A model generated the notes under the pieces. That model had not been told where the DNA came from and did not search any database. It worked only from the letters and a program-made list of their open reading frames with translations. DNA of 64,000 bases from Pseudomonas sp. 31-12 (lineage in GTDB: Bacteria; Pseudomonadota; Gammaproteobacteria; Pseudomonadales; Pseudomonadaceae). The position numbers were made by a program, and so were the translations under genes. Positions 2,714 to 58,849 of the stretch are shown piece by piece. Where the stretch lies: positions 4,898,001-4,962,000 of the forward strand of contig NZ_CP029482.1 of NCBI RefSeq assembly GCF_003151075.1, in the 5' to 3' direction. How positions within the stretch are numbered: position 1 is the stretch's first letter; each line of letters starts with the position of its first letter.

Positions 2714-3452
2714 ACGCGAGCATCACCGCGCACAGCACCAGGAAGCCGCAGAACAGCCCGCGCAATAGCCGCTCCGGCATGGCGTGGGCGATCTTCACGC
2801 CCCAACTGATGCTCATCAATCCGCCGACGGCCAACGGCAAACCGATCATCCAGTCCACTTGATGATGCATCGCGTACGTCACCAGTGTGACGCCGGTGCT
2901 GGGCAGCGCCAGAGCCAGCGACAAGCCTTGGGCCACCACCTGGGTGGTGCCGAACACGCTGGTCAATACCGGCGTCGCCACCACTGCCCCACCGACTCCA
3001 AACAACCCGCCCATGGTGCCGGACGCCGCACCGAGCACACCCAGCCATGGCCAGGAATAACGCATTTGTGCAGAGGCCGGCGCGTTGGCGGTGAACATGC
3101 GCACCAGGTTATAGGCCGACAGGACAATCAAGAACGCGACAAAGCCCACGCGCATGGTTTGCGCGTCGATGCCTACCGCCCAGATCGACCCGATCCACGC
3201 GAAGCAAAACCCCATTGCCGCCAATGGCAACGCGTGACGCATTTCGATGCGATTGCGCTGGTGATAACGCCACAGCGCCAGCATCACGTTGGGCACAACC
3301 ATGACCAACGCCGTGCCTTGGGCTATTTGCTGATCGAGACCGAACAGCACGCCCAGCAACGGAATCGCGATCAAGCCACCGCCAATGCCGAATAGCCCGC
3401 CAAGGGTTCCTAAGGCTGCGCCGAAGACCAGATACATCACGAACTCAATCAC
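2703..3452 (-). CDS. TauE/SafE family membrane transport protein
   Basis: 249 residues beginning at a GTG (VIEFVMYLVFGAALGTLGGL) preceded by GGAA; upstream ATG codons in the frame would add a charged extension atypical of the family. It has two repeats of a glycine-rich membrane hairpin (GGLFGIGGGLIAIPLL and GGLFGVGGAVVATPVL), the TauE/SafE hallmark, and about seven to eight hydrophobic segments. Family members export sulfite, sulfoacetate or other organic anions. It is divergent from the LysR gene at 3562, a likely regulator. Substrate unknown. Confidence 0.88.
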   Translation of the reverse strand: MIEFVMYLVFGAALGTLGGLFGIGGGLIAIPLLGVLFGLDQQIAQGTALVMVVPNVMLALWRYHQRNRIEMRHALPLAAMGFCFAWIGSIWAVGIDAQTMRVGFVAFLIVLSAYNLVRMFTANAPASAQMRYSWPWLGVLGAASGTMGGLFGVGGAVVATPVLTSVFGTTQVVAQGLSLALALPSTGVTLVTYAMHHQVDWMIGLPLAVGGLMSISWGVKIAHAMPERLLRGLFCGFLVLCAVMLAFKV

Positions 3453-3561
3453 AAGCGAATTTCCTTTTGTCAGGGCATTCATCCTACGCAGTCGGCGCTG
3501 GCGGGGAAACGCACAGCAACGCACAATGGCTGTGCCAACTTCGCATAAGCGCAGATACACC

Positions 3562-4518
3562 ATGAACCCCAATCAATTGACTGAACAGCTCGGCCTGTTC
3601 CTCGATGTGCTGGAAACCGGGAGCTTTTCCGCTGCGTCCCGCCGCCATCCGTTGACGCCTTCGGCCGTGGCGCGGCGCATCGACAGCCTGGAAAATGCAG
3701 TCGGCAGCCAGCTGTTCATTCGCAGCACCCACGCGGTGCGCGCGACGCCTGCCGGCTTGGCGTTTGCCGAACGTGCGCGGCGCATCGTTGCGGAATTGCG
3801 CCTGGCTCGGGCTGAAGCCGTGTCCCTGAGCAGTGCACCGGAAGGCTTGATCCGCATCGATGCGCCCGCGGCGTTCGGCCGTCGGCACCTGGCACCGGTG
3901 ATTGCCGACTTCTTGATGCTCTACCCCGGCCTGGACGTGCAGTTGCACTTGATCGACAGTTTTGTCGACATGCAAGGGCTGAACCTGGGCAAGGTTGACC
4001 TGGTGCTGCGCGCCGGGCAAATGGCCGACACGAGGCTGGTGGCCACGCCGCTGGCGAGTATGGTACGCATTGCCTGCGCCAGTCCCGAGTACCTCAAACG
4101 TCGCGGCGTCCCGACCGAGCCGGCGCAGTTGATCGAGCATGACGGTCTCGACTGGGACGGTCTGGCCCCGCCCTTCGCCTGGCGCTTCGAACGCGATGGG
4201 CACATGCACTTGCATCGCCCGGCGCGCATCCGCATGAGCGCCAACAATGCCGAGGCGCTGGTGTGTGGTGCATTGGCCGGGTTGGGCATCGCGCACTTGC
4301 CGACCTGGCTGGCCAGCGAGTACCTGTTGCGCGGCGAATTGCTGCCGCTGTTTTGTGAAAACGGCCTGCCACCTCCCGAATCCACCGGCATCTATGCGTT
4401 GCGTCTTGAGCAGCAACCCAATTCCCGCAGTCGCTTGTTGCTGGAATATCTGAAAACCCGCTTCAGCCCGATTCCGCCGTGGGACCTGGCGCTACAAAAC
4501 ACCCTGGACCGGCACTAG
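3562..4518 (+). CDS. LysR-family transcriptional regulator
   Basis: 318 residues starting MNPNQLTEQLGLFLDVLETG. The N-terminal HTH (SFSAASRRHPLTPSAVARRIDSL) and the substrate-binding domain with FGRRHLAPVIADFLMLYPGL are typical of the large subgroup that includes CrgA-like regulators. A longer in-frame reading upstream lacks family similarity. It lies 109 bases from the divergent TauE/SafE gene, which is its likely target; the inducer cannot be deduced. Confidence 0.88.
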   Translation: MNPNQLTEQLGLFLDVLETGSFSAASRRHPLTPSAVARRIDSLENAVGSQLFIRSTHAVRATPAGLAFAERARRIVAELRLARAEAVSLSSAPEGLIRIDAPAAFGRRHLAPVIADFLMLYPGLDVQLHLIDSFVDMQGLNLGKVDLVLRAGQMADTRLVATPLASMVRIACASPEYLKRRGVPTEPAQLIEHDGLDWDGLAPPFAWRFERDGHMHLHRPARIRMSANNAEALVCGALAGLGIAHLPTWLASEYLLRGELLPLFCENGLPPPESTGIYALRLEQQPNSRSRLLLEYLKTRFSPIPPWDLALQNTLDRH

Positions 4519-4587
4519 TCCAGAATTGTCTGGTGCATTAAAGATTCGTCCGCTAGATTCATGACGATTACTGATCAAGGCTTTGAA

Positions 4588-5049
4588 ATGACCACCGAAC
4601 GCAACACCCCGGATAACTGCGACCAGCTGCTGCTGGACAATCAGGCTTGCTTCGCCCTGCATTCCACCTCGCTGCTGATGACCAAGGTGTACAAGCCGCT
4701 GCTGCAAGCGCTGGGCCTGACCTATCCGCAGTATCTGGCGATGATGGTGTTGTGGGAGCGGGACGGGTTGACCGTAGGCGAAATCAGCACGCGACTGCTG
4801 ACAGACCCCGGCTCACTGACGCCTTTGCTCAAACGCCTGGAGGTCGAGGGTTTGCTCAGTCGCACCCGCAGCCGTGAAGATGAACGGGTGGTGATTGTCG
4901 AGCTGACCGAACAAGGGCGCGCGTTGCGGGAGAAGGCGCGCGGCATTCCCCAATGCATCCTTGGTGCTAGCGGAATGACACTTGAGAGACTGCAGAAACT
5001 TCAAGCGGAGTTGCAAGAACTGCGCAGCAATCTGCAAGACAGCCTCTAA
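4588..5049 (+). CDS. ohrR: MarR-family organic hydroperoxide sensor OhrR
   Basis: 153 residues from ATG 4588, chosen over ATG 4561 because AAGG precedes it. The sequence NQACFALHSTS near the N-terminus carries the reactive Cys (Cys21) of OhrR, and Cys123 (PQCILG) is placed like the resolving cysteine of two-Cys OhrR proteins. The winged helix (TVGEISTRLLTDPGSLTPLLKRLE, REDERVV) is MarR type. In the family, organic peroxides oxidise the cysteine and release the repressor from the ohr promoter. The adjacent ohr gene fits this role. Confidence 0.92.
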   Translation: MTTERNTPDNCDQLLLDNQACFALHSTSLLMTKVYKPLLQALGLTYPQYLAMMVLWERDGLTVGEISTRLLTDPGSLTPLLKRLEVEGLLSRTRSREDERVVIVELTEQGRALREKARGIPQCILGASGMTLERLQKLQAELQELRSNLQDSL

Positions 5050-5070
5050 CCTTCAAACCACCCCAGATCC

Positions 5071-5163
5071 CCTGTGGGAGCGGGCTTGATCGCGAAAGCG
5101 GTGTTGCCAGTCGACAAAAATGTTGCCTGATGCATCGCTTTCGCGAGCAAGCCCGCTCCCACA
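5071..5163. repeat. REP pair (inverted)
   Basis: CTGTGGGAGCGGGCTTG followed about 55 bases later by its inverse, CAAGCCCGCTCCCACA, each arm extended by CGCGAAAGCG / CGCTTTCGCG. It lies between ohrR and the ohr promoter. Confidence 0.85.
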
Positions 5164-5344
5164 TTTGTTTTGTGGTGTCCCTGTCGATCTCGCGTCCTCT
5201 TTCAAAAAAATTCTCCGCTGAAAAATCCTGCCGCGACCGCTCTAACTCGACACATCCAATCCGCTGCCCTCTCCAATCCAAAACTTTTTCAAAAATTTAT
5301 CTTGCGCACTAAATATTGGCGCGATACATTCACTTCGCACTTAC

Positions 5345-5366
5345 TTAGCGCGCAAACATTTAGCGC
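5345..5366 (+). promoter_or_regulatory. candidate OhrR operator upstream of ohr
   Basis: Two direct copies of TTAGCGC (5345-5351 and 5360-5366), the first within the near-palindrome TTAGCGCGCAA, lie 32-53 bases before the ohr start. AT-rich palindromes with a GCGC core are the usual OhrR binding sites. Assignment is by position and resemblance only. Confidence 0.4.
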
Positions 5367-5397
5367 AAACCAATCAAACCCGAACGAGGCTTACACC

Positions 5398-5817
5398 ATG
5401 CAAACTCTCTACACCGCAATCGCAACCTCCACTGGCGGCCGTGACGGTCGTGCGGTTTCCAGTGACAACATCCTCGACGTCAAACTCGCTACCCCCAAAG
5501 AACTCGGTGGTGCCGGTGGCGCTGCGACCAACCCTGAGCAACTGTTCGCTGCCGGCTACTCCGCTTGCTTCATCGGCGCGCTGAAGTTCGTCGCCAGCCA
5601 GACTAAACGCAGCATCCCGAACGACGCATCGATCACCGCCCATGTCGGCATCGGCCAGATCCCTGGCGGCTTCGGTCTGGACATCGATCTGCACATCAGC
5701 CTGCCGGGTCTTGAACAAGCCGACGCGCAAAGTCTGGTCGACGCAGCACACCAGGTCTGCCCGTACTCGAACGCGACCCGTGGCAACGTCGATGTGCGCC
5801 TGCACGTGACCGTCTAA
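5398..5817 (+). CDS. ohr: organic hydroperoxide resistance protein Ohr
   Basis: 139 residues, the usual length. The two catalytic cysteines are visible: Cys57 in AAGYSACFIGAL and Cys121 in HQVCPYSNATRGN, along with the conserved N-terminal TLYTAIATSTGGRDG. Ohr is a dimeric cytosolic thiol peroxidase reducing fatty-acid and other organic hydroperoxides with lipoylated proteins as electron donors. It is placed behind its regulator OhrR; the gap of 348 bases holds a REP pair and a candidate operator. The start is the ATG at 5398 after GAGG. Confidence 0.95.
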   Translation: MQTLYTAIATSTGGRDGRAVSSDNILDVKLATPKELGGAGGAATNPEQLFAAGYSACFIGALKFVASQTKRSIPNDASITAHVGIGQIPGGFGLDIDLHISLPGLEQADAQSLVDAAHQVCPYSNATRGNVDVRLHVTV

Positions 5818-5850
5818 CTGCTGGCTACCAGGCCCAAACAGGAAACGAAC

Positions 5851-6867
5851 ATGAACACTTTCAGCAAAGTCTTGACCGGCACCCTTCTCGCTTTGTCCAT
5901 CAGCAACGTGTTTGCAGGCGATGGGGTTGAACACAACACCCAGGCGTTCCTCGATGTCCTGAATGCCGGCACCGGCAAACCAATGGAACAACTCACCCCC
6001 AAAGAAGCCCGCGCGGTGCTGGTGGGTGCGCAAGCCTCGGTGAAACTGACACTGCCAAAAGCCGATGTCAGCGAGAAGACCATTCAAGTCGATGGCCAAC
6101 CGCTCAGCCTGACCATCGTCCGGCCGGCCGGGGTCAAAGGCGAGCTGCCAGTGTTCATGTTCTTCCACGGCGGTGGCTGGGTGCTGGGGGACTTTCCGAC
6201 CCACGAACGCCTGGTTCGCGACCTGGTGACGGGTTCGGGTGCGGTGGCGGTGTTCGTCAATTACACCCCGTCGCCGGAAGCGCATTACCCGGTGGCGATC
6301 AACCAGGCTTATGCCGCGACGAAATGGGTGGCCGAGCACGGTAAAGAGATCAACGTCGACGGCAAGCGCCTGGCCGTGGCCGGCAACAGCGTCGGTGGCA
6401 ACATGGCGGCCGTGGTTGCGTTGATGGCCAAAGACAAGGGCACCCCGGCGATCAAGTTCCAGGTGCTGCTGTGGCCGGTGACGGACGCCAACTTCGAAAC
6501 CGCGTCCTACAACCAGTTTGCCGAGGGGCACTTCCTCACCAAAAACATGATGAAGTGGTTCTGGGACAATTACACCGCCGACGCCAAGCAGCGTAACGAG
6601 ATCTACGCCTCACCGCTGCGGGCAACCACCGCGCAACTGAAGGGCTTGCCACCTGCCCTGGTGCAGACAGCCGGTGCCGACGTGTTGCGCGATGAAGGTG
6701 AAGCTTATGCGCGCAAACTGGACGAGGCTGGCGTGCCGGTCACAGCGGTTCGCTACAACGGCATGATTCACGACTACGGTTTGTTGAATGTGGTGAGCCA
6801 GGTTCCAGCAGTACGCTCGGCGATGCAGCAGGCGTCGGAAGAACTGAAACAACACCTGAAGAAATAA
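5851..6867 (+). CDS. secreted alpha/beta hydrolase (HSL-type esterase)
   Basis: 338 residues with an N-terminal signal peptide (hydrophobic 8-22, cleavage after VFA). The hormone-sensitive-lipase group signs are present: HGGGW oxyanion motif at 106-110, nucleophile Ser180 in GNSVGG, acid Asp277 in AGADVLRDE and His307 in GMIHDYG. Substrate unknown; such enzymes cleave short-chain esters, here probably in the periplasm. It begins 33 bases after ohr with an AGGAAACG site, so the two may be co-transcribed and the esterase may share peroxide control. Confidence 0.88.
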   Translation: MNTFSKVLTGTLLALSISNVFAGDGVEHNTQAFLDVLNAGTGKPMEQLTPKEARAVLVGAQASVKLTLPKADVSEKTIQVDGQPLSLTIVRPAGVKGELPVFMFFHGGGWVLGDFPTHERLVRDLVTGSGAVAVFVNYTPSPEAHYPVAINQAYAATKWVAEHGKEINVDGKRLAVAGNSVGGNMAAVVALMAKDKGTPAIKFQVLLWPVTDANFETASYNQFAEGHFLTKNMMKWFWDNYTADAKQRNEIYASPLRATTAQLKGLPPALVQTAGADVLRDEGEAYARKLDEAGVPVTAVRYNGMIHDYGLLNVVSQVPAVRSAMQQASEELKQHLKK

Positions 6868-15810: not shown

Positions 15811-16451
15811 CACTACTCCTCGCGGGTCTTGAATTCTGACCCCTACCTTACCGATGTTTTTCCGGCGAAGGAACATCTACGCCACCCCGTGCCTGAATGG
15901 ACACCGAGAAGAACTGCACCGATCTCGCGCAACCGGACACCCTCAAATAGTAGGCACCATTGGCAGAAATGCTCAAGATACGCTCGTCATCGGACTCAGG
16001 TGGCGGGTGCTGCTCCGGGTGACGCAGGGACGGCTCGACCGGAGATATCCGCGGGTCGATAGCCTGAACATTGCCGGATGTTGAGACTTAAGACGAACGC
16101 GCGCTCTTAAAGTCACCATCAAGATGGATAAAGATTATGAGAGCCGCTACGCAAAATCCGAACAAAAGTATGGACGAATCCATATAGGCAGACTTTAGCC
16201 AAGAATGAGAAAAACAGCGCTGAGTGCACGGAACTTTTTTTCGGCGGATCGCTCATCTCGGGCCTCCCAGCTGGATATTTTTTAAACAATGCAGTTAAAA
16301 GTTGCTCGAAAAAGAATCAACGCCTACAATTTTTTTTGCTTCTTGCTACACGTCAGTTTACTTACTAGAAGTAATGGGTAGTATGTACGCCGGCTATTTC
16401 CTCACTCTGAGGAGACAGCTACTTAATAGAAAGTCCTTGAAGGGGAACACG
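15811..16451. other. 641-base region between the acetyltransferase and oprI
   Basis: No convincing gene is seen. The right half is AT-rich and probably carries the oprI promoters, giving a long untranslated leader if the candidate at 16231 is used. A 76-codon reading at 15854-16084 has no recognisable protein character. Confidence 0.5.
16231..16257 (+). promoter_or_regulatory. candidate envelope-stress (AlgU/SigX type) promoter of oprI
   Basis: GAACTT at 16231-16236 is followed after 16 bases by TCATC, close to the GAACTT-N16-TCnnA pattern of AlgU-like sigma factors, about 195 bases before the oprI start. It is a pattern match only; the -10 part is imperfect. Confidence 0.3.
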
Positions 16452-18250: not shown

Positions 18251-18403
18251 TCAAAGCAGCGGTTTCAGTGTCGGCCAGACATTTTCCAGCAACTTGTCCT
18301 GAGCGCCCGCAGCCGGGTGCAATCCGTCGGCCTGCATCAGGTCTGGATGACCGCCCACGCCGTCGAGAAAAAACGGTACCAGCGGAATGTTTTTCTCGTT
18401 GGC
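18251..18403 (-). pseudogene. 3' fragment of tesA, left copy of the 153-bp direct repeat
   Basis: It matches 21840-21992, the last 50 codons and stop of the complete tesA, with two differences in 153 bases (18306 C for A, giving Gly for Val; 18386 A for G, silent). The match starts exactly at the tesA stop codon and stops at 18403, after which the sequence is unrelated. It has no start and cannot encode an esterase. It marks the left edge of the Hxs insertion and must be the ancestral tesA end, still next to the old neighbour. Confidence 0.93.
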
Positions 18404-18557
18404 TAGGCTTCTATACGCCTCGAAATTTGCCGGCCTTGCTACGTCTGTCGGATTTAAGAGATGGATAATCGTTCCAGCGCTAATTCCACATTGACATCAC
18501 CGCCGAACGCCAGCGAGACTCGCTGCATAACCTCACCAATGATAAGGAAATCCAGTA

Positions 18558-18842
18558 ATGAAAAAGCGTTCCTTTTTGGTACCAATGGCAACTCTGGCAG
18601 CAGCCGTAGCTACGGAGCAGGCTTCGGCTTTAGTCACCCACGAGGCTGTCGAGCCCAGCACCGACACCACAATCTCACTCCAATCGGCTACTCAGAGCGA
18701 AAACATTTCGGCTCGCGGCGGCAATGATCTATTTGCGTTTGTCCTGAAACGTGGAGATCAAGGTCAGTTCATGGCTTACCACAGCTCTCATAGCTCCCAC
18801 GCTTCGCACAGCTCACATAGCTCCCACCACTCGGGCTCCTGA
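18558..18842 (+). CDS. hxsA: His-Xaa-Ser repeat peptide HxsA
   Basis: 94 residues. The N-terminal part (MKKRSFLVPMATLAAAVAT, then an acidic Thr/Ser-rich segment) may act as a leader or export signal. The C-terminus, residues 75-92, is six consecutive His-x-Ser triplets (HSS HSS HAS HSS HSS HHS) ending GS. HxsA is the presumed substrate of the radical-SAM proteins HxsB and HxsC. An AAGGA site lies upstream of ATG 18558. A conserved-looking FVLKRGDQGQF stretch precedes the repeats. Confidence 0.92.
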   Translation: MKKRSFLVPMATLAAAVATEQASALVTHEAVEPSTDTTISLQSATQSENISARGGNDLFAFVLKRGDQGQFMAYHSSHSSHASHSSHSSHHSGS

Positions 18843-18843
18843 A

Positions 18844-19146
18844 ATGGAATTTACGGCTAGGCTCGCGTTTGATGAGCGGCTTTATGACGGACAGGTTTTG
18901 CAAAAAGCCACTTACCGCTCGATGAATTCACTGACAGCTGATATCACATGCGCCGATGGGAAATTTATCTGCGCCTTATCCTCGAATATCGGCATAGATG
19001 AGCCTGCGTTTCTGTCTGCTGTTCAAGAATTCAAGAAGGATGTCCTCGACTACCAGCTGCGTCACAAGCTGAACGTTGAGACCCTACCGATCAGGAATCT
19101 GATCCTTGGGCTGGCCTTCTCAAAAACCGGGCTAATCAGTGAGTAA
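18844..19146 (+). CDS. hxsD: His-Xaa-Ser system protein HxsD
   Basis: 100 residues starting one base after the hxsA stop. It carries the family's signature region as DVLDYQLRHKLN (the family is described by an LLNDYxLRE-like motif) and ends RNLILGLAFSKTG. Function is not established; a role as a small partner or recognition protein for the maturases is an inference from its constant linkage to them. Its end overlaps the GTG of hxsB by 8 bases, implying coupled translation. Confidence 0.88.
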   Translation: MEFTARLAFDERLYDGQVLQKATYRSMNSLTADITCADGKFICALSSNIGIDEPAFLSAVQEFKKDVLDYQLRHKLNVETLPIRNLILGLAFSKTGLISE

Positions 19147-20596
19147 ATTCCATAAGCTGGAATTTTATGTAGAGCAACGCCCCTACGAATTGCTGCCTTT
19201 CAAATTTGATCGCCTGAATGACGACGAGTACGTCATCACCAATATGGCAGGCGAGTATCACGTCATACCAATACCAATGCTCGAACCGCTGATCAGCAAA
19301 ACGCTTGCGATCTCATCAGAGCTGATCCCTGCGCTCCGGTCGAAGCAGTTCATCCGATTCGCCAATGAGCAGGCGCCACTTCAGCTTCTGGCACTCAAAA
19401 TTCGCACACGCTTGTCCCGACTAGCCCAGTTCACCAATCTGCACATCTTTGTCGTGACCCTTCGCTGCGACCATAGCTGCCCGTATTGCCAGGTATCAAG
19501 GCAATCGGAGAGTAAAGGGGAATTCGACATGACGAGAGAGATGGCTGAAAAGTCGCTTGATTTCGTTTTCAGATCCCCCAACCCAGCCATCAAAATAGAA
19601 TTCCAGGGGGGTGAGCCACTGCTGAACTTTGAGATGGTGGAGTACGTCGTTCTTGAGGCTAAAAAACGCAATCTCAAAGAAGGTCGCGATCTTCAGTTCG
19701 TCATCGCAACCACGCTGTCGCTTCTGACTGATGACGTGCTCGACTTCTGCAAGCAGCACAACATCGTACTTTCTTCCTCTCTCGACGGGCCAATGGACCT
19801 TCATAATGCGAATCGCCCAAGACCCGGACGAGACAGTCATCAGCGTTTCGAAGAAGGCCTGAAAAAGGCCCGCGCAGCTCTTGGCTACGACCAAGTGTCG
19901 GCTCTAATGACGACTACTGATAAGAGCCTTCCGCTAGCCCGTGACATCATCGATGAGTATTTGCGTCTGGGTTTTGACGGAATTTTCCTCCGCACTCTTT
20001 CTCCATACGGCTTCGCAATCAAGACCAAAAAATTCATGTCGTATGACACTGAGCGCTGGTTGGAATTTTACAAGGAAGGTCTTGATTACATCATTGAACT
20101 GAACAAGTCCGGCATACGATTTGTCGAGCAATACTCCTCTCTCGTACTGACAAAAATGCTGACCTCTGGGGATCCTGGCTTTGTTGATTTGATGAACCCC
20201 GCTGGCGCAGGTATAGCCGCCATCGTGTTCAATTACGATGGAGCCGTCTATGCCTCAGATGAAAGCCGGATGCTTGCCGAGATGGGCGATCATACGTTCA
20301 GACTGGGCAACGTTCTTGAGCATTCCTATGAGGAAATCATTCTTTCCGATCAGCTTCTGGACGCACTGGAAAATTCCTTCACCTTGAGCGCCCCTATGTG
20401 CTCCGACTGTGCGTTTGAGCCTTACTGTGGTGCCGAACCCGTCTACCACCACGCCATGCACAAGGATCTGGTAGCGAGAAAACCTGAATCCTCGTTCTGC
20501 AAGCGCAACATGGCGATTTTTAAGCATCTCATTGAACTGATGGGAAGCGACGAACATACGAAACGGATTTTTATGGGGTGGGCCAATCGATGCTGA
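19139..20596 (+). CDS. hxsB: radical SAM/SPASM maturase HxsB
   Basis: 485 residues from GTG. The radical-SAM cluster motif CxxxCxxC is Cys110, Cys114 and Cys117 (LRCDHSCPYCQ). FQGGEP provides the glycine-rich SAM contact. A C-terminal SPASM-like cysteine set is at 421, 424, 430 and 454 (CSDCAFEPYC, FCKRN), expected to hold auxiliary iron-sulfur clusters, as in peptide-modifying enzymes. It probably makes a radical-based crosslink or other change in the HxS repeats of HxsA; the actual chemistry cannot be read here. Confidence 0.93.
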   Translation: MSKFHKLEFYVEQRPYELLPFKFDRLNDDEYVITNMAGEYHVIPIPMLEPLISKTLAISSELIPALRSKQFIRFANEQAPLQLLALKIRTRLSRLAQFTNLHIFVVTLRCDHSCPYCQVSRQSESKGEFDMTREMAEKSLDFVFRSPNPAIKIEFQGGEPLLNFEMVEYVVLEAKKRNLKEGRDLQFVIATTLSLLTDDVLDFCKQHNIVLSSSLDGPMDLHNANRPRPGRDSHQRFEEGLKKARAALGYDQVSALMTTTDKSLPLARDIIDEYLRLGFDGIFLRTLSPYGFAIKTKKFMSYDTERWLEFYKEGLDYIIELNKSGIRFVEQYSSLVLTKMLTSGDPGFVDLMNPAGAGIAAIVFNYDGAVYASDESRMLAEMGDHTFRLGNVLEHSYEEIILSDQLLDALENSFTLSAPMCSDCAFEPYCGAEPVYHHAMHKDLVARKPESSFCKRNMAIFKHLIELMGSDEHTKRIFMGWANRC

Positions 20597-21753
20597 AGCT
20601 CAGCGGGAAGGTTATCCGTATCCACGCGGTCAATGTTTACAAGGACCTCACCCTGATCAAGGTTTCCACCAATCGGAACCTGCCTGAAATCCTGCGACGG
20701 GAAATGGCGTATCTGATTTCCGATCATGAGATACCCACAGGTTTCGCCCACTATCTACTGACTGAGCAATATCAGAAGCTGGCGGAGGGACTGCCTGCCG
20801 GCTCTGACTACTCCATCCTGGCGAATGAATTCAGTTACATCGGTGACAATGACGTTATCCGGCTTTCAGCTGATCGCCAGAGTATTCGAGTGTTGTTTAG
20901 GGCTACGTCACCCAACAACAGCATCCTGTTGACCGAGCAGTGCAATAACTACTGCCTTATGTGTTCTCAACCGCCTAAAGCTGCTGATGATTCATGGATA
21001 CTCGATGAGGTCGAGAGCTTGATTCCGTTGATCCCGAAAGAGACCCGGGAGCTGGGGTTTACGGGAGGTGAGCCTACGACGGACAAAGAGCGTTTTCTTA
21101 AGATCATTCGCCTGACAAAGAGCTATCTGCCAAGAACCGCGATTCACATCCTTTCTAACGGTCGAAGCTTCAAAGATCCAACGTTCGCAAAAAAATATGC
21201 CGCAATTCAATTGCCTGACGCGATGATCGGAATCCCCGTCTACTCAGACGATCCGACACTGCATGATTACATCGTCCAGGCTCAAGGAGCGTTCGATGAA
21301 ACCATTCAGGGCATTCTTAACCTCAAGCGCCTGGGTCAGAGGGTCGAGATCCGAGTGGTCATACACAAGCTCTCTGTGCAGCGACTTCCTGAGTTGTGTG
21401 AGTTCATCGCCCGCAATCTTCTTTTTGTCGATCAAGTGGCACTGATGGGCCTTGAAATGATGGGCTTCACCAGAGCCAATCTAGACGAGCTATGGATTGA
21501 TCCAATTGAGTACAAAGACACGCTTAGCAGGTCCGTTAGCATTCTGGCCAAGTACGGCATGAACATTTCGGTCTACAACCATCAGCTTTGCTTGGTGAAT
21601 CCCGACATCCTGCCCTACTACCGCAAATCGATCAGTGATTGGAAAAACGAGTTCGCACCCGAATGCCAGAGCTGTAAAAAACAGACTGAGTGCGGCGGCT
21701 TCTTCGCCTCGGGTGTCAAATTCGGCTACAGCAAACAGCTATCTCCTTTCTGA
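20590..21753 (+). CDS. hxsC: radical SAM maturase HxsC
   Basis: 387 residues from ATG 20590, overlapping the end of hxsB by 7 bases (a GTG at 20578 is possible). The cluster motif is Cys118, Cys122 and Cys125 (TEQCNNYCLMC), with LGFTGGEPT as the SAM-binding glycine motif. C-terminal Cys359, Cys362 and Cys368 (CQSCKKQTECGG) may bind a further cluster. Two maturases in tandem distinguish the Hxs family from single-enzyme peptide systems; division of labour is unknown. Confidence 0.92.
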   Translation: MLKLSGKVIRIHAVNVYKDLTLIKVSTNRNLPEILRREMAYLISDHEIPTGFAHYLLTEQYQKLAEGLPAGSDYSILANEFSYIGDNDVIRLSADRQSIRVLFRATSPNNSILLTEQCNNYCLMCSQPPKAADDSWILDEVESLIPLIPKETRELGFTGGEPTTDKERFLKIIRLTKSYLPRTAIHILSNGRSFKDPTFAKKYAAIQLPDAMIGIPVYSDDPTLHDYIVQAQGAFDETIQGILNLKRLGQRVEIRVVIHKLSVQRLPELCEFIARNLLFVDQVALMGLEMMGFTRANLDELWIDPIEYKDTLSRSVSILAKYGMNISVYNHQLCLVNPDILPYYRKSISDWKNEFAPECQSCKKQTECGGFFASGVKFGYSKQLSPF

Positions 21754-21839
21754 CCCTCTCACGTAGAAATCTGCATTTTCAGTCACAAGCGTTCTATGTT
21801 CGACGATCAGCGTCCGAATTGATCCTCTTGGCAATTATT

Positions 21840-21992
21840 TCAAAGCAGCGGTTTCAGTGTCGGCCAGACATTTTCCAGCAACTTGTCCTGAGCGACCGCA
21901 GCCGGGTGCAATCCGTCGGCCTGCATCAGGTCTGGATGACCGCCCACGCCGTCGAGAAAAAACGGTACCAGCGGGATGTTTTTCTCGTTGGC
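21840..21992. repeat. right copy of the 153-bp tesA 3' direct repeat
   Basis: It is the functional 3' end of tesA and is 151/153 identical to 18251-18403 at a constant offset of 3589. Neighbouring bases differ on both sides, so the repeat boundaries are sharp. Confidence 0.95.
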
Positions 21993-22445
21993 GAGTGTGC
22001 TGTAGACCTTCGCAAAGGCCTCGGTATAGCGAACGCCATAGTTGGGTGGCAGCTGCATGCCAAGCAAAAGCACCTTGGCGCCACTGTTCCTGGAGCTGTC
22101 GATCATCGACGCAAGGTTTTGTTGCAAATTAGCTGGGGGCATTCCGCGCAGGCCGTCGTTGCCGCCCAACTCAAGGATTACCAGCTCCGGCTTATGCTCT
22201 GCAAGCAGCGCGGGCAGGCGCGCCTGGCCTCCGGCGCTGGTGTCGCCGCTGATGGAGGCGTTGACCACCTTATCGTCGAAACCTTCACGCTTGAGCCGTT
22301 GCTCAAGCAACGACACCCACCCCAAGCGGGTATCCAGGCCGAAACCGGCGCTGATACTATCGCCAACGATCAGGACTGTTCCCGCCGCTGCGTTCTGGGC
22401 CATGCACATCAAGGCCAGGCCAGCACTCAAAAACCACACTCGCAT
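21840..22445 (-). CDS. tesA: SGNH esterase/thioesterase TesA (arylesterase)
   Basis: 201 residues. Signal peptide ends at AQNAAA. SGNH blocks are visible: GDSIS with Ser30, the glycine in SISGDT, GGND with Asn96, and DGLHP with Asp177 and His180. The enzyme is a periplasmic multifunctional acyl hydrolase. The start at 22445 has GGAG upstream, inside the first codons of the divergent ybbA gene, whose ATG is only 10 bases away. The last 50 codons are duplicated at 18251-18403. Confidence 0.95.
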   Translation of the reverse strand: MRVWFLSAGLALMCMAQNAAAGTVLIVGDSISAGFGLDTRLGWVSLLEQRLKREGFDDKVVNASISGDTSAGGQARLPALLAEHKPELVILELGGNDGLRGMPPANLQQNLASMIDSSRNSGAKVLLLGMQLPPNYGVRYTEAFAKVYSTLANEKNIPLVPFFLDGVGGHPDLMQADGLHPAAVAQDKLLENVWPTLKPLL

Positions 22446-58276: not shown

Positions 58277-58849
58277 GTTCGTCCATGTCACAGACGCCGT
58301 CGATGCTTGCGCCCTGTCAGCCGTCATCCTCGGATACCATCCGGGACTTGGGGTAACAGTTTTCTCTTGGAGAATATTCTGCGTTTCAGCATTCGACGAG
58401 ACTCCGACACCTACTGGCGGCATAACCTATTCGGCCCTTGGTGACGGAGTTACTCGTCACTTACTACGGCTTCGGCTGACTTTTGCACGTTCATCCCGTC
58501 GCCTCTCGACGCTCGGTAGCACACTGGCAAACGTGCAGATCTCCCAGGGTAATTCGCGCGACCTTTCTGCTTATGCCTGTCGGGTTTACGTCGTAGCGTT
58601 CCGTGCAAGTATTGGGCTTTGATGATGCATGCCATCTCACCCCGCTACGTAGCCTAATCCGCTTCCTGTTCGTCAGGCCAGCATTTTGCCTCGGGCTTCC
58701 TTCAGATTCGCAGTCACCCGCGACACCCTTGCCTCTGGCTAACACTCCCCCTTGCCGGGTGTGTAGAGGACTTTCACCTCCAAGTTACCAGCGTGGCCAC
58801 CACAGCCAAACTGGTTGCGCTTACGCGCAACGCGCCATGCCTGGCGCAC
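58277..58849 (-). ncRNA. group II intron 5' region (class C-like), truncated
   Basis: On the minus strand the sequence begins GTGCGCCAGGCATGGCGCG, a group II 5' end, and continues with domain I stretches such as GGAGGTGAAAGTCCTC, AAGGGTGTCGCGGGTGAC, AATCTGAAGGAAGC and GGCCTGACGAACAGG, in the order seen in class C introns. CAAAAGTCAGCCGAAGCC lies before the reverse-transcriptase start. Fragments of that protein (PRENCYPKS, then QGASIDGVCDMDE at 58310-58278) include an in-frame stop and end at the IS3 element. The catalytic RNA 3' part and rest of the protein are missing. Confidence 0.8.

What the first reader, a model, noticed from the sequence alone, without database searches (positions are those of the whole stretch)
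18404..21839. A complete His-Xaa-Ser (hxsADBC) system as a discrete 3.4-kb insertion
Seen: four genes in tight order, with a short His-rich peptide, a small partner protein and two radical-SAM enzymes, each with intact CxxxCxxC. Known: the Hxs set was defined by genome comparison as a candidate peptide-modifying system with two maturases; to my knowledge its product and role are not well characterised. Inference: a ribosomally made, radically crosslinked peptide system acquired by an environmental Pseudomonas. The cassette contains nothing else, so these four genes appear sufficient as a transferable unit. There is no dedicated exporter or protease.
Basis: partly seen in the sequence, partly recalled or inferred. 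Interest (0 to 1): 0.85.

Follow-up and report, generated by a model that had tools for sequence, protein, structure and literature searches.

The report
Peptide-modifying cassette stranded in tesA
Four genes that probably make and chemically tie up a small histidine-rich peptide sit at the end of a housekeeping gene, most likely left there by a mobile element that has since lost its own cutting-and-joining enzyme.

Summary
The cassette is real. The precursor is HxsA2 (NF038296, 104 bits), not classical HxsA (17 bits, cut-off 122). In relatives the same tesA site holds integrase-bearing islands: two with hxs, two with other cargo, two not fully seen. They share a 15-bp core at tesA codons 107-112 and bring their own TesA C-terminus, so the host enzyme becomes a chimera. 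The window belongs to a second form, seen in 7 genomes: no integrase, no core on the left, two repeat copies kept alike within each genome. hxsBC of these seven form one clade, yet host and hxs trees conflict strongly for one (TH15), so an integrase-less unit has moved between hosts, probably by homologous recombination. A second site (3' end of a lysR-type gene) repeats the pattern: 4 of 5 without such an integrase, 1 with a broken one. Mechanism (inferred): HxsB, whose model matches AnSME and CteB, and HxsC modify six in-register His-Xaa-Ser triplets; Sec export is likely. The chemistry is untested. The hxs system is known; its vehicle and the repeated loss of the integrase appear new.

The parts
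18251..18406 (-). left direct repeat: orphan copy of the tesA 3' end (156 bp), followed by a decayed tesA tail
   Evidence: blastn 153/156 to 21840-21995; tail decay read by eye in the alignment
18490..18499 (+). ATTGACATCA: conserved promoter-like box (TTGACA at 18491-18496)
   Evidence: present in 22 of 22 Pseudomonas hxsA2 loci of this clade (one with T for C), 64-68 bp before the start codon
18515..18520 (+). GAGACT, weak -10-like hexamer 18 bp after TTGACA
   Evidence: GA[ACG]ACT at spacing 18 in 14 and at spacing 17 in 4 of 22 loci; function not tested
18558..18842 (+). hxsA2, 94-aa precursor: signal-peptide-like N-terminus (1-24), variable linker, conserved LKRGDQGQ segment, His-Xaa-Ser array
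   Evidence: NF038296 104.1 bits, cut-off 48; alignment of 25 loci
18780..18833 (+). six in-register His-Xaa-Ser triplets (residues 75-92)
   Evidence: 6 triplets in 23 of 24 intact sequences, 5 in the other
18844..19146 (+). hxsD, 100 aa, predicted ferredoxin-like fold (beta-alpha-beta-beta-alpha)
   Evidence: TIGR03976 47.9 bits, cut-off 50; AF2 pLDDT 89.2
19139..20596 (+). hxsB, 485 aa, radical-SAM maturase (C110, C114, C117; C421, C424, C430, C454)
19196..19429 (+). hxsB N-terminal domain (about residues 20-97), beta-beta-beta-alpha-alpha-alpha, leader-binding (RRE-like) candidate
   Evidence: secondary structure of the model; alignment to CteB and TigE starts at residues 20 and 12
20590..21753 (+). 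hxsC, 387 aa, radical-SAM maturase (C118, C122, C125; C359, C362, C368)
   Evidence: TIGR03977 393.1 bits, cut-off 267.9; cysteines
21840..21995 (-). right direct repeat, inside the intact tesA
21840..22445 (-). tesA, full length (201 aa), target gene
22111..22125 (+). GCAAGGTTTTGTTGC, the core (attB-like, tesA codons 107-112) used by tesA-specific islands in relatives; present once in the window, missing from the left copy

Best explanation
The window holds an immobile derivative of an island that targets the 3' part of tesA. Shown by sequence: relatives carry islands at this site made of a tyrosine integrase, cargo (hxsA2DBC in two) and a replacement TesA C-terminus, joined at a 15-bp core. 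Shown: the window form has neither that integrase nor a left core, its two tesA-end copies are kept alike, and a cassette of its lineage has crossed between hosts. Inferred: it descends from such an island, and such cassettes now spread and are lost by ordinary homologous recombination in tesA. Inferred function: HxsB binds the precursor through its N-terminal domain, HxsB and HxsC (with HxsD as a partner) join His to Ser in the His-Xaa-Ser triplets, most likely as three-residue C-C rings, and the product leaves the cytoplasm by the Sec route with signal peptidase I as its only protease, which would explain why no exporter or protease is carried.
For: 156-bp repeats; 7 genomes share the integrase-less form; left versus right copy 93.8-99.3% identical within a genome, left copies 85.4-95.1% between genomes. 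Integrase beside a tesA remnant in 5 of 30 loci fetched around relatives of the G206 integrase, which matches in 57 of 398 Pseudomonas genomes, plus L086. TesA chimera in L037, L086, L140: residues 1-106 are 89-97% identical to the window, 107-201 67-68%, while the three island C-parts are 95-97% identical to each other; two empty-site TesA give 95-96% and 87-89%. Core found on both sides of L037, L086, L104, L140 and of the split L141/L142, but once in the window, in the six other integrase-less loci and in three empty sites. Integrase R, HxLRH and GH..Y motifs found in L037, L086, L140. hxsBC: the integrase-less seven are monophyletic, 98/99; host clade L076+L077+L087 rejected by hxs data, p 2.8e-138, and hxs clade L087+L089+L034 rejected by host data, p 2.9e-6. 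Purifying selection over the 21 pairs of the seven: amino-acid differences 5.0-13.5% against 20-61% at fourfold sites. Unbroken three-residue register with a varied middle residue in 24 sequences. Ala at positions 22 and 24 in 25 of 25, KKR or KNR at 2-4. Precedent for His C2 to C-beta of residue i+2: HaaB (passages of PMC11002830).
Against: No intermediate between the two forms was found, and a search of the non-hxs parts of the seven cassettes found no trace of the integrase, ORF250 or KilA-N gene, only the promoter-like stretch of about 70-80 bp in five of seven. In the integrase-bearing islands with hxs the right tesA end is foreign (67-68%), in the window form it is native, so a second step (conversion, or import into an empty allele) must be assumed. 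The integrase-less clade is far from both integrase-bearing tesA cassettes (41-62% at fourfold sites). In L104 and L142 the chimera is not visible (N 75-76%, C 63-66% to the window), and my GH..Y pattern was not found in the L104 and L141 integrases. The groups in the AU tests were named after seeing the trees. HxsB scores far below cut-off for the four cyclophane families among the 25 of 61 hits shown, so the ring chemistry is by analogy of motif. No signal-peptide predictor was run. The N-terminal domain of HxsB was not searched alone.
Confidence: 0.52

Rival explanations
1. One old insertion at tesA inherited vertically, with many precise losses by recombination between the repeats; no transfer of the cassette after integrase loss. 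(The rivals below bear on different steps and are not all exclusive.)
For: Same site and orientation in all seven; integrase-less hxsBC monophyletic; 144-161-bp alike stretches in six of seven (124 bp in L089) give an easy precise-loss route; patchy presence on the host tree, nearest relative of the window empty.
Against: TH15 (L087): host genes 25-26% different at fourfold sites from L076 and L077 but hxsBC 51% different, and grouped with L034 and L089; both data sets reject the other's grouping.
Confidence: 0.2
2. The cassette was inserted directly by illegitimate or RecA-type recombination with a tesA-bearing circle and never descended from an integrase island.
For: Right tesA end is native in the window form, unlike in integrase islands with hxs; no trace of integrase, ORF250 or KilA-N genes in the seven cassettes.
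Against: Same gene, same end, same orientation and cargo order as the integrase islands L037 and L086; the parallel at the lysR-type site where one of five still holds a broken integrase of the same family.
Confidence: 0.27
3. HxsA2 is a His-rich metal-binding or metal-carrying periplasmic peptide, the enzymes making a modification other than His-Ser rings (for example hydroxylation, epimerisation, a His-backbone bond).
For: Only the motif suggests the ring; HxsB's best fold matches are AnSME (which oxidises a Ser or Cys, recalled) and CteB, entered as thioether bond formation.
Against: Two maturases and a strict three-residue register with a varied middle residue favour i to i+2 linkage.
Confidence: 0.4
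4. The cassette is a defence or conflict module carried like other island cargo.
For: L037, an integrase-bearing relative, has a phage-like companion (KilA-N-like, phrog_2812/129; also a 16-bit match to PADLOC PDC-S22), and the layout resembles non-autonomous Pseudomonas islands that carry putative phage defence (passages of PMC12595487).
Against: The four hxs proteins have no PADLOC hit apart from weak radical-SAM similarity of HxsB and HxsC to viperins, 22-35 bits.
Confidence: 0.1

Closest known systems
His-Xaa-Ser (Hxs) system, NCBIfam TIGR03976/TIGR03977/TIGR03978 with HxsA2 NF038296
   Same: All four gene families, gene order A-D-B-C, His-Xaa-Ser array
   Different: Sits as an integrase-less cassette in tesA; HxsD marginally below its cut-off; precursor is A2, not HxsA
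Triceptide maturases HaaB/YhhB/AmcB (three-residue cyclophanes)
   Same: Aromatic residue, one free residue, partner residue; His C2 to C-beta known for HaaB (PMC11002830 passages)
   Different: HxsB scores 58-65 bits against cut-offs of 425-445 for AmcB and YhhB; two enzymes instead of one; product unknown
CteB (5wgg/5why) and TigE (8vpo), radical-SAM peptide maturases
   Different: 17-18% and 15% identity; different substrates
tmRNA-site tyrosine-integrase islands of Pseudomonas (I23, I44, I55)
   Same: Non-autonomous islands, tyrosine integrase at one end, direct repeats, variable cargo (PMC12595487 passages)
   Different: Here the target is a protein-coding gene, tesA, with a long replaced 3' end; the window form has lost the integrase
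hxs genes on Klebsiella plasmids and on a Leptospira LE1-type phage
   Same: hxs as mobile cargo; HxsB 44% identical in the phage, order A-D-B-C
   Different: Klebsiella record seen: order D-B-C-A, between insertion sequences, HxsC 32% identical

Membership tests
His-Xaa-Ser system | HxsB maturase (TIGR03978) | tested here: met
   624.7 bits, cut-off 370
His-Xaa-Ser system | HxsC maturase (TIGR03977) | tested here: met
   393.1 bits, cut-off 267.9
His-Xaa-Ser system | HxsD partner (TIGR03976) | tested here: inconclusive
   47.9 bits, cut-off 50; precomputed domain PF27806.1 on all 120 listed proteins, P0001 being the window's own, but no hit at E<=0.01 in the Pfam copy scanned here
His-Xaa-Ser system | precursor with repeated His-Xaa-Ser next to the maturases | tested here: met
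   HxsA2 NF038296 104.1 bits, cut-off 48
classical HxsA precursor (TIGR03979) | score over curated cut-off | tested here: not met
   17.4 bits, cut-off 121.65
His-Xaa-Ser system | modified product | not testable with these tools
   needs co-expression and mass spectrometry
three-residue cyclophane (triceptide) maturases | score over the cut-off of a characterised maturase family | tested here: not met
   YhhB 64.5/445, AmcB 58.1/425, GrrM/OscB 47.3/310, FxsB 42.3/370, among the 25 of 61 hits shown
three-residue cyclophane (triceptide) maturases | ring between residue i and i+2 | not testable with these tools
   only the motif spacing fits
RRE-dependent peptide maturases | PqqD-like leader-binding domain | tested here: inconclusive
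   beta3-alpha3 N-terminus and alignment to CteB/TigE from residue 20/12; domain not tested alone
tyrosine-integrase genomic island | integrase within the element | tested here: not met
   none among the four genes; no relative of the tesA-island integrase in the window's own genome at E<=1e-60; no trace in the cassette's other stretches
tyrosine-integrase genomic island | flanking direct repeats at a gene 3' end | tested here: met
   156 bp, 98%
tyrosine-integrase genomic island | recombination core on both sides | tested here: not met
   core at 22111-22125 only

The most novel reading that the evidence does not exclude
tesA is the attachment site of a family of islands that rewrite the host thioesterase's C-terminus, and hxs is a cargo that outlives its vehicle: after the integrase is lost it keeps spreading as a homologous-recombination cassette, while its two enzymes make a run of six neighbouring His-to-Ser three-residue rings in a Sec-exported peptide.
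Probability: 0.22. Interest if true: 0.75.

Novelty: new variant of a known kind. Interest (0 to 1): 0.52.

Why it matters
Hxs is a named peptide system whose product I could not find described; in the two papers whose passages I saw it is mentioned, not worked on. The locus gives a compact set of four genes under one conserved promoter-like box, kept under purifying selection at tesA and at a lysR-type gene without an integrase, which says that these four are the selected unit and what to clone. It also suggests a route by which biosynthetic genes change from integrase-driven to recombination-driven spread, and shows a protein-coding integration site whose use alters a host enzyme.

Tried and rejected
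Two-copy count of the tesA end: 15 of 398 genomes had two blastn matches. A closer look at 12 of these showed that eight second matches are 24-46-bp chance hits. Real second copies are in G206, G254 and G062, and in the window, G161 and G215; in G178 tesA is split over two contig ends and unresolved. blastn misses divergent island ends: G030 and G117 were found only through the integrase. Only 30 integrase loci of the 57 matching genomes were fetched and checked; the cargo of G117 (L127) was not seen, and G062 (L141, L142) is split over two contigs, no hxs in the parts seen.

Loose repeat test (6-kb flanks, 15 non-tesA loci): hits at E<=0.01 in nine, L045, L075, L081, L082, L091, L079, L080, L085 (E 0.009) and L039; none in L084, L088, L090, L078, L038, L040. 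At E<1e-9 the same test is positive in 24 of 118 overlapping control places of the window, so L045, L079, L080, L085 and L039 are leads only. The strict test gives 11 of 24 against 2 of 486; the two integrase-bearing tesA loci and L045 fail it because their repeats lie further out, and in L037 and L086 they are 68% alike.

HxsD as a PqqD-like protein: the model is ferredoxin-like with no PDB match at E<=0.001, and sequence search gave only chance-level hits. Promoter: only the box was compared, no expression data. Plasmid, phage and E. coli collections gave no near copy of the cassette. Several metagenome contigs of about 3.45-3.5 kb carry close HxsB or HxsD; they fit assembly breaks at the repeats as well as circles, so I draw nothing from them. 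The host-tree count of 9 changes includes L071, which is the same genome as L034 and was wrongly labelled empty; by my reading 8 without it, not recomputed. L083 (hxsC cut short near a contig end) was left out of the trees and the triplet count; seven loci (L033, L035, L036, L041-L044) were dropped as repeats of named-contig loci, six by equal contig length, L033 because its comparison values equal those of L087.

Papers: Hxs searches listed no work on a product; tesA-site searches listed no tesA island. Only listings and passages were seen. The 2011 paper that defined Hxs is not held and is known to me by recall and by its citation in PMC9062424.

Full report
What is there. Four tightly packed genes, hxsA2, hxsD, hxsB and hxsC, at 18558-21753 match the His-Xaa-Ser families: HxsB and HxsC far over their cut-offs, HxsD just under (47.9 against 50), and the precursor over the cut-off of HxsA2 but not of classical HxsA. 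The insertion lies between two 156-bp copies of the tesA 3' end, 153 of 156 identical. Taking it out with one copy gives a sequence that aligns without a gap over 955 bp to L046, the empty site nearest on the host tree.

How common. Among 398 Pseudomonas genomes, 17 have a match over the HxsA2 cut-off, 14 of them over the whole profile, the window included. A scan of named genome contigs gave 29 relatives of HxsB, 18 of them in Pseudomonas. From both I made a set of 24 hxs loci (rows dropped are told under Tried and rejected); 9 lie in tesA.

Two forms at tesA. L037 and L086 hold, from left to right, a tesA remnant (native type), a tyrosine integrase (483 aa in L037, PF00589 1.1e-16), hxsA2DBC, an ORF of 250 aa (phrog_3360 in L037), a KilA-N-like protein (in L037 21.7 bits, below the 23.8 cut-off; phrog_2812), and a complete tesA. 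Their complete TesA is a chimera: residues 1-106 are 92-97% identical to the window's, residues 107-201 only 67-68%; a third island with other cargo, L140, has the same kind of C-part (95-97% identity among the three), while TesA of two empty sites gives 95-96% and 87-89%. In L104 and L142, further off in host, this contrast is not visible. The two tesA copies of L037, L086 and L104 are alike up to a common block ending in GCAAG[AG]TT[TC]TGTTGC, whose ends GCAA and TTGC are inverted; L140 and the split L141/L142 have it on both sides too. This is how a tyrosine recombinase that targets a gene would look. L104 and L140 are tesA islands without hxs; L127 and L141/L142 have the integrase beside a tesA remnant, cargo not fully seen. 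So hxs is one cargo among several. The window and six other loci (L076, L077, L087, L089, L094, L034) have no relative of this integrase in the locus, no core on the left, and a repeat that is alike over 124-161 bp. No trace of the integrase, ORF250 or KilA-N gene was found in their remaining stretches, so descent from an integrase island is inferred, not shown.

Repeats are kept alike. Within each of the seven genomes left and right copies are 93.8-99.3% identical over 144 bp; between genomes left copies are 85.4-95.1% identical. The length of the alike stretch varies and the left copy fades into what reads as a decayed tesA tail. This fits continuing gene conversion between the copies after one old event better than seven fresh duplications; it is an inference.

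Vertical or horizontal. On a tree of the flanking genes the tesA-hxs genomes are scattered among empty sites (31 empty rows, chosen as the nearest tesA matches and three others; one further row was wrongly labelled, see Tried and rejected). hxsBC of the seven form one clade (98/99). But L087 has host genes close to L076 and L077 (25-26% at fourfold sites) and hxsBC 51% away from both, grouped with L034 and L089; the AU test rejects each tree's grouping on the other data (2.8e-138 and 2.9e-6). The groups were named after seeing the trees, so the p values are optimistic, though the likelihood gaps (337 and 209) are large. So at least one integrase-less cassette moved or was replaced between hosts.

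A parallel. In L045, L075, L081, L082 and L091 the cassette lies beside a gene of one LysR-type cluster (family shown for L075) whose 3' end is repeated (52-138 bp). L045 still has pieces, in different frames, of an integrase 42-49% identical to that of L037; the other four have no relative of it in the locus. Four of these five pass the strict repeat test, L045 does not. Well-supported branches of the hxsBC tree force at least two changes for this site. The DNA shared by all sites starts near the promoter-like box and ends at the hxsC stop.

Verdict. The system is known; the precursor subtype here, the tesA island family with chimeric TesA, the integrase-less derivative with homogenised repeats, its transfer, and the parallel at a lysR-type gene are what this study adds. 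Searches for prior reports: in an open-licence library only, listings and passages seen.

Noticed in passing
L140 5230-12523; L104 4089-11137; L141 2438-4247 with L142 2587-3192: tesA-site integrase islands of the same family; L140 and L104 carry other cargo; proteins of 334-341 aa near the right end, without a Pfam hit in the one tested (L104).
   Followed up: partly
L156 (Klebsiella plasmid) 3351-6748: hxsD-B-C-A between insertion sequences near tet(A); HxsC relatives found in 332 Klebsiella plasmid records, one looked at.
   Followed up: partly
L155 (Leptospira phage) 3293-6602: hxsA-D-B-C annotated on a phage record; nine IMG/VR contigs encode HxsB relatives (not analysed).
   Followed up: partly
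L083 5785-8197: Pseudomonas avellanae: the HxsA2 array runs into another sequence after four triplets and hxsC is cut short near the contig end; looks degenerate.
   Followed up: no
L079 8136-8435 and 12671-12970: 300-bp repeat, 99% identical, its right copy covering the 3' end of a sigma-54 activator gene, around a methyltransferase-like gene plus hxs: possible further insertion site.
   Followed up: partly
L080, L084, L085, L088 right of hxsC: methyltransferase-like gene (166 aa in L085, PF13649) next to hxsC in four loci, a relative left of hxs in L079; tRNA-Thr downstream in L080 and L084.
   Followed up: partly
window 58434-58723: group II intron parts D1D4-1 and D1D4-3 on the minus strand.
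   Followed up: no
window 16271-16415: Pseudomonas sRNA P14 (108.5 bits).
   Followed up: no
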